A DNA stretch of 64,000 nt from Rothia similimucilaginosa (GTDB taxonomy: Bacteria > Actinomycetota > Actinomycetes > Actinomycetales > Micrococcaceae). A program made the position numbers and the translations under genes. The notes below the pieces were generated by a model, which was given only the letters and a program-made list of their open reading frames with translations, was not told the origin of the DNA and searched no databases. Shown piece by piece: positions 3,021 through 6,026 of this stretch (positions are counted from its first letter, which is position 1; every line of letters starts with the position of its first letter). The stretch covers positions 1 to 64,000 of the forward strand of contig NZ_JAOVAM010000002.1 in the NCBI RefSeq assembly GCF_029850875.1, read 5' to 3'.

Positions 3021-3749
3021 GTGCGCCTCGATAAATACCTGGTCGAAGCCGGATTCGTGAGCTCACGAACCCTCGCCGCAAAACTCATCGCGGCAGGAGA
3101 CGTACAAGTCAACGGCAAGGTTGCACGCAAAGCGTCCATGCTCGTGGGCCCGGAGGATACCCTCTACGTGCGCCAGAGCGAACTGACCGAATACGTCAGT
3201 CGCGCAGGCCACAAGCTCGCCGGTGCCCTCGACGCATTCCCCGATATTGAGGTGGAAGGTAAGCGCTGCCTGGACGCGGGAGCCTCCACCGGAGGCTTTA
3301 CCGACGTGCTACTTCGTCGAGGAGCTGCCCACGTAGCCGCCGTTGATGTAGGACACGGGCAGCTTGTGGAAACACTACGCAAAGAACCGCGAGTTGGCGT
3401 GTACGAAGGACTCAATGTTCGTTACATGAAGCCCGAAGATATTGGCGGGCAGGTTGAGCTGACGGTTTCTGACCTCTCGTTCATCTCGCTGACCCTGGTC
3501 ATGGAGTCGCTAGCGAACGCCACCGAAACCGGTGGCGACCTGGTGCTCATGGTCAAGCCGCAGTTCGAGGTTGGCAAACACCGCATCGGACGCGGGGGAG
3601 TGGTGCACGAAGAATCCGCCCGCCGTGAAGCAGTGGAAAAAGTCCAGGCATCTGCGGTAAGCCACGGATTGCGCGTGATGGGTATGGAACCCAGCCCGCT
3701 CCCCGGACAGGACGGCAACGTAGAGTACTTCCTATGGTGCAAAAAATAA
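3021..3749 (+). CDS. tlyA: TlyA rRNA (cytidine-2'-O)-methyltransferase
   Basis: Protein of 242 residues, usual TlyA length about 250-270. Residues 1-60 form an S4 RNA-binding domain (RLDKYLVEAGF). Residues 75-240 form an FtsJ-like Rossmann methyltransferase with the SAM-binding DAGASTGGFTDVLL motif. TlyA 2'-O-methylates 16S and 23S rRNA cytidines and determines capreomycin sensitivity in mycobacteria. Start is GTG 3021. In related genomes nadK follows directly; here the mer element is inserted one base after the tlyA stop codon, leaving the reading frame intact. Confidence 0.95.
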   Translation: MRLDKYLVEAGFVSSRTLAAKLIAAGDVQVNGKVARKASMLVGPEDTLYVRQSELTEYVSRAGHKLAGALDAFPDIEVEGKRCLDAGASTGGFTDVLLRRGAAHVAAVDVGHGQLVETLRKEPRVGVYEGLNVRYMKPEDIGGQVELTVSDLSFISLTLVMESLANATETGGDLVLMVKPQFEVGKHRIGRGGVVHEESARREAVEKVQASAVSHGLRVMGMEPSPLPGQDGNVEYFLWCKK

Positions 3750-3750
3750 A
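3742..3750. repeat. Left copy of 9-bp direct repeat flanking the mer element
   Basis: AAAAATAAA overlaps the tlyA stop codon and is repeated exactly at 6018-6026 at the other edge of the low-GC segment. This is what a target-site duplication would look like. The sequence is A-rich, so chance identity cannot be excluded. Confidence 0.6.
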
Positions 3751-3857
3751 GGGTCTTCGGAATATATAGTGGAATTACTTTCTTAATAGTTTAAAAACAA
3801 CTGGTGTTTAAATCGGATTTTCTGGTGGGATGTTAGGATAATCAATAGTATTATATA

Positions 3858-3887
3858 AAAGTATCAATCACATACGAGTGATACTTT
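3858..3887. repeat. Hairpin upstream of merR promoter
   Basis: A perfect 9-bp inverted repeat (AAAGTATCA at 3858-3866 with TGATACTTT at 3879-3887) is followed by an A-rich run. It may be a terminator remnant of a gene once upstream of mer in the donor; it would insulate the mer promoter from tlyA transcription. Confidence 0.45.
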
Positions 3888-3915
3888 GGGAAAAAAATAA
3901 AATAGTCCAATTTAC

Positions 3916-3947
3916 TTGACCGTGTACTATGGTACATGGTTTATAAT
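3916..3947 (+). promoter_or_regulatory. MerR-type promoter/operator of the mer genes
   Basis: The -35 box TTGACC (3916-3921) and -10 box TATAAT (3942-3947) are separated by 20 bp, the overlong spacer typical of MerR-controlled promoters. Inside the spacer lies an imperfect dyad CCGTGTAC/GTACATGG (3920-3927 and 3932-3939, 7 of 8 matches), the expected MerR operator position. MerR normally untwists such a promoter when mercury is bound. Confidence 0.85.
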
Positions 3948-3966
3948 ATTCAGGGGGTGAAATAAG

Positions 3967-4290
3967 ATGATTTATCGCATTAGTGAGTTTGCAGATAAAT
4001 GTGGAGTTAATAAAGAAGCGATCAGATATTACGAGCGAAAAAATTTATTACAAGAACCTCACCGAACGGAAGCTGGTTATCGGATATATTCATATGATGA
4101 CGTTAAGCGTGTTGGGTTTATTAAACGAATACAGGAACTTGGTTTCTCTTTAAGTGAGATTTATAAATTACTTGGTGTTGTAGATAAAGATGAAGTTCGT
4201 TGTCAAGATATGTTCGAATTTGTTTCTAAAAAACAAAAGGAAGTGCAAAAACAAATAGAGGATTTAAAACGAATTGAAACTATGTTATAA
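3967..4290 (+). CDS. merR: Truncated MerR mercury-responsive regulator
   Basis: Residues 1-70 are a complete MerR winged helix-turn-helix (CGVNKEAIRYYERKNLL) and residues 75-107 begin the dimerisation helix. The protein stops after 107 residues (...KRIETML), whereas Gram-positive MerR proteins have about 132. Of the three mercury-binding cysteines of the family (C79, C114, C123 in Bacillus numbering), only C79 remains; the loop with the other two is absent. ATG 3967 is preceded by a strong AGGGGGTG site. The stop codon is 30 bases before the merA ribosome-binding site, as if an internal deletion joined the two. It can probably bind DNA but not sense mercury normally. Confidence 0.85.
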   Translation: MIYRISEFADKCGVNKEAIRYYERKNLLQEPHRTEAGYRIYSYDDVKRVGFIKRIQELGFSLSEIYKLLGVVDKDEVRCQDMFEFVSKKQKEVQKQIEDLKRIETML

Positions 4291-4322
4291 TAGAAAAATT
4301 AACAAACGAAAGGAGCTTTTTT

Positions 4323-5963
4323 ATGAATAAATTTAAGGTAAACATTTCAGGAATGACTTGTACGGGTTGTGAAAAACACGTAGAATCAGCACTTGAAAAG
4401 ATAGGTGCTAAAAATATTGAGTCTAGTTATCGTCGTGGTGAAGCAGTATTTGAACTGCCCGATGATATTGAGGTTGAAAGTGCAATAAAGGCGATTGATG
4501 AAGCAAATTACCAAGCCGGAGAAATTGAAGAAGTATCATCACTAGAAAACGTGGCGTTAATTAATGAAGACAATTATGACCTTCTTATTATTGGTTCTGG
4601 TGCTGCTGCCTTTTCTTCGGTAATTAAAGCTATAGAATACGGTGCAAAAGTTGGAATGATTGAGCGTGGAACGGTTGGGGGAACCTGTGTGAATATTGGC
4701 TGTGTTCCGTCAAAAACTCTTCTTAGGGCAGGGGAAATCAATCATTTATCAAAAGACAATCCGTTTATAGGTTTACAAACATCCGCTGGAGAAGTGGATT
4801 TAGCTAGTTTAATCACGCAAAAGGATAAATTGGTGAGCGAACTTCGGAATCAAAAATATATGGATTTAATTGATGAATATAATTTTGATTTAATTAAAGG
4901 TGAAGCAAAATTCGTTGATGCTAGTACGGTTGAGGTCAATGGGACAAAGTTATCTGCAAAACGCTTTTTAATTGCAACAGGTGCATCGCCTTCGTTGCCC
5001 CAAATTTCAGGACTTGAAAAAATGGACTATTTAACTAGTACAACACTTCTTGAGTTAAAGAAAATACCAAAACGATTAACTGTAATTGGTTCAGGATACA
5101 TTGGAATGGAGCTTGGACAACTATTTCATCATTTAGGTTCAGAAATAACGCTTATGCAAAGAAGTGAGCGACTTTTAAAGGAGTATGATTCTGAGATTTC
5201 AGAGTCAGTTGAAAAAGCGTTAATTGAACAGGGTATAAACCTTGTCAAAGGGGCAACTTTTGAGCGTGTTGAACAAAGTGGAGAGATAAAAAGGGTTTAC
5301 GTAACAGTAAATGGCAGTAGAGAAGTCATTGAATCAGATCAGTTACTTGTTGCCACTGGAAGAAAACCAAATACGGATTCTTTAAATTTAAGTGCAGCAG
5401 GTGTTGAAACTGGAAAAAATAATGAAATCCTGATCAATGATTTTGGCCAAACAAGTAATGAAAAGATTTATGCAGCAGGAGATGTGACTTTAGGACCACA
5501 ATTTGTATATGTAGCAGCCTATGAAGGTGGAATTATTACTGATAATGCTATTGGCGGATTAAACAAAAAAATAGATTTATCGGTAGTTCCTGCTGTTACG
5601 TTTACGAATCCGACGGTTGCAACGGTTGGTTTAACAGAAGAACAAGCAAAAGAGAAAGGGTATGATGTGAAGACATCTGTATTACCTTTAGATGCTGTTC
5701 CAAGAGCAATTGTAAACCGTGAAACAACCGGTGTATTTAAACTAGTAGCAGATGCAGAAACACTAAAAGTATTAGGGGTTCATATTGTATCTGAAAATGC
5801 AGGAGATGTCATCTATGCAGCATCATTAGCTGTTAAATTTGGCTTAACGATAGAAGATTTAACAGAAACCCTAGCACCATATTTAACAATGGCTGAAGGG
5901 CTAAAATTAGTTGCACTTACGTTCGATAAAGATATTTCGAAATTATCTTGTTGTGCAGGCTAA
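4323..5963 (+). CDS. merA: Mercuric reductase MerA
   Basis: Protein of 546 residues, full length for Gram-positive MerA. Residues 1-70 form one heavy-metal-associated domain with GMTCTGC. Residues 85-540 form an FAD/NAD(P)H disulfide oxidoreductase with the redox-active GGTCVNIGCVPSK and the dimerisation domain. The C-terminal vicinal cysteines (SCCAG) that pass Hg(II) to the active site are intact. It reduces Hg(II) to volatile Hg(0) in the cytoplasm. AAAGGAG precedes ATG 4323. Base composition and codons resemble oral or environmental Firmicutes rather than the host, so recent horizontal transfer is likely. No dedicated Hg(II) transporter accompanies it. Confidence 0.97.
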   Translation: MNKFKVNISGMTCTGCEKHVESALEKIGAKNIESSYRRGEAVFELPDDIEVESAIKAIDEANYQAGEIEEVSSLENVALINEDNYDLLIIGSGAAAFSSVIKAIEYGAKVGMIERGTVGGTCVNIGCVPSKTLLRAGEINHLSKDNPFIGLQTSAGEVDLASLITQKDKLVSELRNQKYMDLIDEYNFDLIKGEAKFVDASTVEVNGTKLSAKRFLIATGASPSLPQISGLEKMDYLTSTTLLELKKIPKRLTVIGSGYIGMELGQLFHHLGSEITLMQRSERLLKEYDSEISESVEKALIEQGINLVKGATFERVEQSGEIKRVYVTVNGSREVIESDQLLVATGRKPNTDSLNLSAAGVETGKNNEILINDFGQTSNEKIYAAGDVTLGPQFVYVAAYEGGIITDNAIGGLNKKIDLSVVPAVTFTNPTVATVGLTEEQAKEKGYDVKTSVLPLDAVPRAIVNRETTGVFKLVADAETLKVLGVHIVSENAGDVIYAASLAVKFGLTIEDLTETLAPYLTMAEGLKLVALTFDKDISKLSCCAG

Positions 5964-6017
5964 GGGAACTTTTTTACAACTCCCTATTCAACGGTGTCGA
6001 AAGTAAATTATAGTGCC

Positions 6018-6026
6018 AAAAATAAA
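6018..6026. repeat. Right copy of 9-bp direct repeat flanking the mer element
   Basis: AAAAATAAA, identical to 3742-3750. Sequence after it returns to host-like composition within a few bases. Confidence 0.6.

What the first reader, a model, noticed from the sequence alone, without database searches (positions are those of the whole stretch)
3742..6026. Foreign mer segment inserted one base behind tlyA, with a 9-bp direct repeat
AAAAATAAA occurs exactly at both borders of a 2.27-kb low-GC segment that splits the otherwise contiguous tlyA-nadK pair. No transposase is inside. Seen directly: repeat, composition jump, gene order. Known: tlyA and nadK adjoin in related genomes. Inferred: a transposition event that carried a minimal mercury-detoxification unit from a Firmicute into an actinobacterium.
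Basis: partly seen in the sequence, partly recalled or inferred. Interest (0 to 1): 0.75.

Follow-up and report, generated by a model that had tools for sequence, protein, structure and literature searches.

The report
Crippled jumping mercury-resistance element
A known mercury-resistance transposon, nearly identical to a copy in a mouth streptococcus, landed just behind a housekeeping gene of an actinobacterium (probably Rothia), then lost its jumping machinery and most of its mercury sensor; the repeat that first drew attention was already in the host DNA.

Summary
The foreign mer segment is real; the 9-bp repeat is not its target duplication. The imported DNA is 3751-5991 (2,241 bp), the left part of a published transposon, Tn7546 (3,775-3,791 bp: inverted repeat, merR, merA, ISL3 transposase, inverted repeat; PMC9782665), already tabulated there in Rothia aeria. 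The nearest copy found, in Streptococcus parasanguinis, differs by 6 point changes outside one merR lesion. Transposase, right inverted repeat and right target copy are gone. Two deletions in merR remove Cys114 and Cys123 (two of three mercury ligands), and the junction forms an extended -10 box, TGTTATAAT, 32 nt before merA. MerA is intact. Same-genus G039 carries a related ISL3 insertion with perfect 8-bp duplication. Best reading: a recent Tn7546 insertion, now immobile, with merA possibly constitutive from the new promoter or tlyA read-through (untested).

The parts
3021..3749 (+). tlyA (TlyA family rRNA 2'-O-methyltransferase), intact; host gene upstream of the insertion
   Evidence: TIGR00478 above cut-off; 1104-3750 is 93.5% identical to G021
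3743..3750 (.). AAAATAAA, inferred left copy of the 8-bp target duplication
   Evidence: abuts the inverted repeat; 31 of 39 copies have perfect 8-bp duplications at this position; the same 8-mer is the duplication in E. dispar L065
3751..3774 (+). left inverted repeat, GGGTCTTCGGAATATATAGTGGAA
   Evidence: identical in 41 of 46 copies whose left end was seen; first base of homology in unrelated sites; its first 11 bases are the inverted repeat given for Tn7546
3916..3947 (+). original mer promoter/operator: TTGACC, 20-nt spacer with dyad, TATAAT
   Evidence: 19-20 bp spacers are typical of MerR-family promoters (PMC9909328, passage)
3967..4290 (+). merR, truncated to 107 aa; lacks Cys114 and Cys123; T18A relative to L010
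   Evidence: TIGR02051 155.2 bits, still over its cut-off of 150.85; 29 of 32 copies scanned encode 130 aa; Cys positions
4263..4291 (+). promoter-like site formed at the merR deletion junction: TTTAAA, 17 nt, TATAAT with TG extension
   Evidence: no TATAAT within 150 nt upstream of merA in any of 31 copies scanned
4323..5963 (+). merA, mercury(II) reductase, 546 aa, open, Cys at 13, 16, 122, 127, 543, 544
   Evidence: TIGR02053 637.4 bits, cut-off 454.45; 5x1y 1156 bits over residues 1-546; Cys list
5990..5992 (.). true right junction: element sequence (CTATTCA-A) meets host sequence (A-CGGTGTCG), one shared base; transposase, right inverted repeat and right target copy absent
6028..6104 (+). 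strong hairpin between insertion and nadK; similar hairpins fold in G021 and G009; possible end of the tlyA transcript (inferred; no T-run, and the terminator scan did not list it)
   Evidence: -48.4 kcal/mol, z -7.0; relatives; scan
6262..7284 (+). nadK, host gene downstream
   Evidence: NF002892 above cut-off

Best explanation
A Tn7546-type transposon (ISL3 transposase, merR-merA) transposed into the AT-rich target AAAATAAA one base behind the tlyA stop codon. Shown by comparison: element identity, exact left end, empty site in relatives, near-identical copies. A deletion of about 1.48 kb of element, with one shared base at its ends, removed the transposase, the right inverted repeat, the right target copy and 1-2 host bases, so the unit cannot move by itself (shown: these parts are absent; inferred: that they were once here, and the order of events). 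Two small deletions removed the mercury-binding end of MerR (shown; loss of sensing is inferred). MerA is intact and predicted to reduce Hg(II) to Hg(0) (family knowledge). Its expression is inferred to be mercury-blind or constitutive, from the extended -10 box at the merR deletion junction, from tlyA read-through, or both; my probability for that expression step alone is about 0.35.
For: Homology to full elements starts exactly at the inverted repeat and ends at 5991. 31 of 39 copies with both ends have perfect 8-bp duplications, A+T 0.907; PMC9782665 reports the same for Tn7546 and lists a copy in Rothia aeria. Six point differences from the S. parasanguinis SK148 copy outside the lesion, all six private to the window in a nine-row alignment. 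merA tree: starred 7-row clade (95/93) with L010, L011, L012, L013, L014, L023. Empty site in G021 and G009; G043 adjoining but diverged. Segment absent from 38 of 38 other genomes (G021 matched host flank only) and from 393 of 393 (three matched 49-59 nt). No match to the transposase in the own genome; the same query rang in 3 of 3 control genomes. Same-genus G039 holds an element with the same kind of ends and a perfect 8-bp duplication GATAAATA just behind an rsgA-like gene. merR lesion and promoter-like site.
Against: Only one end survives, so a target duplication cannot be seen in this copy; 8 of 39 copies lack a perfect one (2 of these match 7 of 8). One genome per species is held, so the deletions could be strain-specific or, without reads, an assembly fault. 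The promoter reading is post hoc: the scan found 6 promoter-like sites where shuffles give 5.7, and TGNTATAAT occurs at least once in 29 of 100 shuffles of the whole window. merA shows no sign of selection: of its four point changes against L010 two alter the protein (A100V, P290S).
Confidence: 0.89

Rival explanations
1. One reading: a unit bounded by the two AAAAATAAA copies as a 9-bp target duplication, with its right border at 6026.
For: Exact 9-bp match at both places; 3 occurrences in 64 kb against 0.25 expected.
Against: 5992-6026 is native in the empty sites of G021 and G009, which carry two copies of the 8-bp core; element homology stops at 5991.
Confidence: 0.02
2. A linear mer fragment (from transformation or a lost plasmid) was joined by illegitimate recombination at both ends, without transposase.
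For: The right junction is plainly illegitimate, with one shared base.
Against: The left junction lies exactly at the inverted repeat, next to an AT-rich 8-mer like the element's other targets. G039 and the published R. aeria copy show true transposition in or near this genus.
Confidence: 0.05
3. Dead relic (compatible with the insertion history above): merA is not expressed and the promoter-like box is chance.
For: merR truncated and mutated, transposase gone, two protein changes in MerA; promoter-like scan count no higher than shuffles.
Against: merA has no stop or frameshift; TGNTATAAT has a Markov chance of 0.35% per 68 nt with the segment's composition, and it sits at a fitting distance from the merA ribosome site; the segment lies before the hairpin behind tlyA.
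Confidence: 0.4
4. Assembly or contamination artefact from streptococcal DNA.
For: No reads available; the assembly has 13 contigs.
Against: Both flanks match G021 at 92-93.5% on one contig; the copy has six point changes private in the nine-row alignment and merR deletions not seen in the copies listed; listed contamination is 0.
Confidence: 0.04

Closest known systems
Tn7546 (called Tn7456 in the abstract), Staphylococcus hominis; PMC9782665, abstract, passages and part of section 9 and Table 3 seen
   Same: merR-merA-ISL3 transposase, inverted repeat GGGTCTTCGGA, 8-bp duplications; tabulated copies include Rothia aeria LPB0401, Granulicatella elegans, Haemophilus parainfluenzae
   Different: Published copies are 3,775-3,791 bp; the window copy is 2,241 bp, lacks the right part and has a truncated merR. 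The R. aeria copy has another target (TTGTTAAG). Not compared base by base with those accessions
mer-ISL3 element in Streptococcus parasanguinis SK148 (L010, 4364-8152, 3,789 bp)
   Same: Same inverted repeat and gene order; 6 point differences outside the merR lesion
   Different: Complete, with duplication AATTTTTT
Plasmid copies in Enterococcus faecium pA10290_P2 (L002) and Lactococcus lactis (L003)
   Same: Same ends and gene order; annotated ISL3 family transposase behind merA
   Different: L002 has 35 point differences outside the lesion; neither has matching 8-bp flanks
Transposase-deleted derivatives in Streptococcus sp. F0442 (L023) and Enterococcus dispar (L065)
   Same: mer kept, most of the transposase lost
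   Different: They keep both inverted repeats and perfect 8-bp duplications
ISL3-type insertion behind an rsgA-like gene in same-genus G039 (L107, 7106-10598)
   Same: Same kind of ends, AT-rich 8-bp duplication at a stop codon
   Different: Both ends kept, transposase in pieces, ArsR/SmtB-type regulator instead of mer
MerR PDB 4ua1 and MerA PDB 5x1y (4ua1 as Bacillus MerR is recalled; the call names it only Regulatory protein)
   Same: MerR residues 1-107 align to 4ua1 1-107; MerA aligns over 1-546
   Different: Window MerR stops before the Cys114-Cys123 loop

Membership tests
Tn7546-type mer transposon (intact) | left inverted repeat at the border | tested here: met
   3751-3774 identical to 41 of 46 copies; first 11 bases as published
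Tn7546-type mer transposon (intact) | right inverted repeat | tested here: not met
   absent; host DNA resumes at 5991/5992
Tn7546-type mer transposon (intact) | ISL3 transposase gene | tested here: not met
   no ORF in the segment, no match in the genome; control rang in 3 of 3 genomes
Tn7546-type mer transposon (intact) | 8-bp target duplication on both sides | tested here: not met
   left AAAATAAA only; 31 of 39 other copies have it
remnant of a Tn7546-type transposon | collinear near-identical sequence starting at the exact element end, in a site empty in relatives | tested here: met
merR-merA operon | MerA above curated cut-off with its cysteine pairs | tested here: met
   637.4 bits against 454.45; Cys122/127 and 543/544; their catalytic role is recalled
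merR-merA operon | MerR with three Hg(II) cysteines | tested here: not met
   Cys79 remains, 114 and 123 lost; ligand set from a PMC9909328 passage. The shortened protein still passes the MerR cut-off narrowly
merR-merA operon | mercury-induced expression | not testable with these tools
   needs transcript data
unit with 9-bp duplication (reader) | single repeat copy in the empty site | tested here: not met
   two copies of the 8-bp core in G021 and G009

The most novel reading that the evidence does not exclude
This Tn7546 copy was domesticated by deletions: one fixed it in place by removing the transposase end, another removed the mercury sensor while forming a consensus promoter directly before merA, turning an inducible mobile operon into a fixed, constitutive mercury reductase inside a housekeeping transcript.
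Probability: 0.27. Interest if true: 0.5.

Novelty: new member of a known kind. Interest (0 to 1): 0.3.

Why it matters
The exact insertion point with an empty site makes the event datable, and the copy is a natural test of whether an inducible resistance operon is rewired to constitutive expression after losing its sensor and its mobility.

Tried and rejected
Rejected: 9-bp duplication (empty sites). Rejected: ancient vertical origin (segment absent from the relatives searched; six point changes from a streptococcal copy). Rejected: the inverted pair 3784-3809 / 5722-5747 as transposon ends; it is internal and one arm is inside merA. The merR lesion and the right junction were sought in viral contigs: 0 matches each; the inverted repeat gave one contig (L102), only aligned.

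Papers: ten searches of an open-licence library; several listings were cut (20 of 38, 20 of 995, 15 of 463, 12 of 44). I saw passages of seven papers: PMC4438569, PMC3366996, PMC5027573, PMC9909328, PMC9782665 (plus part 1 of section 9), PMC7593597 and PMC8386447; all others as listings only. I therefore lowered novelty and interest, lowered the interest of the novel case, raised the main explanation from 0.86 to 0.89 and lowered the illegitimate-joining rival from 0.07 to 0.05. PMC7593597 describes merA and merR flanked by ISL3 transposases in S. pseudintermedius. PMC3366996 calls mercury resistance common in oral bacteria and notes a mobile mercury locus in Actinomyces naeslundii. None of the passages or listings I saw describes this truncated copy. 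Tn6009 was recalled and searched (listing only), not compared by sequence.

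Full report
What was checked. The window is G000:C6:1-64000 of a 2.05-Mb, 13-contig genome. AAAAATAAA is at 3742-3750, 3893-3901 and 6018-6026 and nowhere else in the window (0.25 expected). GC drops to 0.32-0.40 between tlyA and nadK. NCBIfam places MerR, MerA, TlyA and NAD kinase.

What the segment is. Megablast against plasmids matched 104 records (40 listed); the best (98.3%) cover window 3751-5991 and no more. In the E. faecium and L. lactis records the mer genes are followed by an ISL3 family transposase, and the shared sequence starts in different host DNA at the same base, GGGTCTTCGGAATATATAGTGGAA. The other end, TTCCACCATAAAATCCGAATACCC in L010, is its inverted repeat (20 of 24 positions). 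A scan of one genome per species found 410 relatives of MerA, best 80 kept. Of 82 loci compared (these 80 and the two plasmid loci; 81 with a hit), 39 had both element ends with readable flanks; L020 and L040 had both ends but were cut by contig ends and dropped. Of the 39, 31 have a perfect 8-bp duplication, 2 match 7 of 8, and 6 do not match (L002, L003, L024, L025, L075, L088). The perfect ones are 90.7% A+T. This is the published transposon Tn7546: merR, merA, tnpA of ISL3 family, inverted repeat GGGTCTTCGGA, 8-bp duplications, 3,775-3,791 bp, tabulated in staphylococci, lysinibacilli, streptococci, Granulicatella elegans, Haemophilus parainfluenzae and Rothia aeria LPB0401 (PMC9782665). 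The window holds its left part.

The empty site. In G021, window 1104-3750 and 5991-8292 align end to end with one base between (93.5% and 92.2%). The site reads GCAAAAAATAAATACGGTGTCGAAAGTAAATATAGTGCCGAAAATAAATAG. G009 has the same arrangement; G043 has tlyA and nadK adjoining with a shorter, diverged spacer. The insertion therefore lies directly behind AAAATAAA, as the element's targeting predicts, and host DNA resumes at 5991/5992. The right-hand AAAAATAAA is part of a native near-repeat (TATGGTGCAAAAAATAAA / TATAGTGCCAAAAATAAA); within the 9 bases it differs from G021 and G009 by one. What is missing on the right, compared with L010, is about 1.48 kb of element, one target copy and 1-2 host bases; the ends share one A.

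Where it came from. Against L010 (S. parasanguinis SK148) there are 6 point differences outside the merR lesion and one 1-base gap, all 6 private to the window among the nine rows aligned. The merA tree (33 rows: window and copies at 90% or more over nearly full length) puts the window in a starred 7-row clade with three Streptococcus copies, Granulicatella elegans, Gemella haemolysans and Haemophilus sputorum, hosts I recall as oral or airway (the bootstrap had not settled). The segment is absent from 38 of 38 other relatives (24 of them same-genus; G021 matched only host flank) and from 393 of 393 other genomes sampled from the class (three matched 49-59 nt at 76-80%). One genome per species is held, so these counts do not contradict the published R. 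aeria strain. The arrival is recent; the direct donor, Firmicute or another Rothia, is unknown.

What became of it. MerR is 107 aa; of 32 copies scanned, 29 encode 130 aa, two were not matched by my start motif (L019, L037) and one is 43 aa (L082). The lesion is a 52-bp and a 13-bp deletion plus one base change. It removes Cys114 and Cys123. In Tn501 MerR the two corresponding cysteines plus one from the partner chain hold Hg(II) (PMC9909328, passage); the spacings of 35 and 9 residues agree. MerA keeps its length and cysteines and differs from L010 at A100V and P290S. 5x1y aligns over all 546 residues. It is the only protein of the genome over the MerA cut-off, of 8 matches.

A possible rewiring. 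The deletion junction reads TGTTATAAT at 4283-4291 with TTTAAA 17 nt upstream; its last base is 32 nt before the merA start, which has an AAAGGAG ribosome site. None of 31 scanned copies has TATAAT within 150 nt upstream of merA (L037 could not be scanned), though these copies share ancestry and count as about one observation. A first-order Markov model gives 0.35% for TGNTATAAT and 4.1% for TATAAT in 68 nt. Against this, the scan of 5.9 kb found 6 promoter-like sites where shuffles give 5.7, and 29 of 100 shuffles of the whole window hold the motif somewhere. The insertion also sits between the tlyA stop and a strong hairpin also seen in G021 and G009 (z -7.0), so tlyA transcripts may read through merR-merA; the hairpin has no T-run and was not listed by the terminator scan. 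Both routes would free merA from MerR; neither is shown.

Support from the genus. A transposase query found nothing in the own genome and rang in 3 of 3 control genomes. It matched 6 of 35 genus genomes, most weakly; in G039 it found pieces of a related element, with ends GGGTATTCGGATTTTATGGTGGAA and CCGAAGACCC flanked by GATAAATA on both sides, at the stop of an rsgA-like gene. Elements with these ends do transpose in this genus.

Verdict. Foreign mer insertion confirmed, carrier identified as the known Tn7546, repeat explained away, decay and possible rewiring added. Ordinary in kind; the state of this copy is what is new.

Noticed in passing
L107 7106-10598 (G039, same genus): ISL3-type element with perfect 8-bp duplication GATAAATA at the stop of an rsgA-like gene, transposase in pieces, ArsR/SmtB-type regulator as cargo; an ORF at 10777-11553 looks transposase-like by eye but was not searched.
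   Followed up: partly
L023 and L065: Two mer elements lost most of the transposase but keep both inverted repeats and perfect target duplications (Streptococcus sp. F0442, Enterococcus dispar): natural non-autonomous derivatives.
   Followed up: partly
L012, L067, L068: Haemophilus contigs carry mer-ISL3 elements; L067 and L068 with duplication AAAATTAT, the same as published for H. parainfluenzae M1C42_1. In L012 the right end was not seen.
   Followed up: partly
L002 6001-9867: In E. faecium pA10290_P2 the element ends about 0.8 kb from the annotated vanZ end of a vanA cluster on a plasmid typed as conjugative.
   Followed up: no
L071, L072, L073, L075, L076, L088: Elements with the same ends and a 96-97% left part but a merA region only about 73% identical to L002: cargo seems exchanged inside the same ISL3 frame.
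   Followed up: no
L082: Another copy (Piscibacillus salipiscarius) with a merR open for only 43 aa from the usual start.
   Followed up: no
L102: IMG/VR contig carries 2.5 kb of the element at 97.3%; nature of the contig not examined.
   Followed up: no
window 40940-41480: Low-GC stretch (windows at 0.40-0.45) without an Rfam match at gathering threshold; looks intergenic.
   Followed up: no
window 70-186 and 21504-21577: 5S rRNA and a tRNA gene.
   Followed up: no
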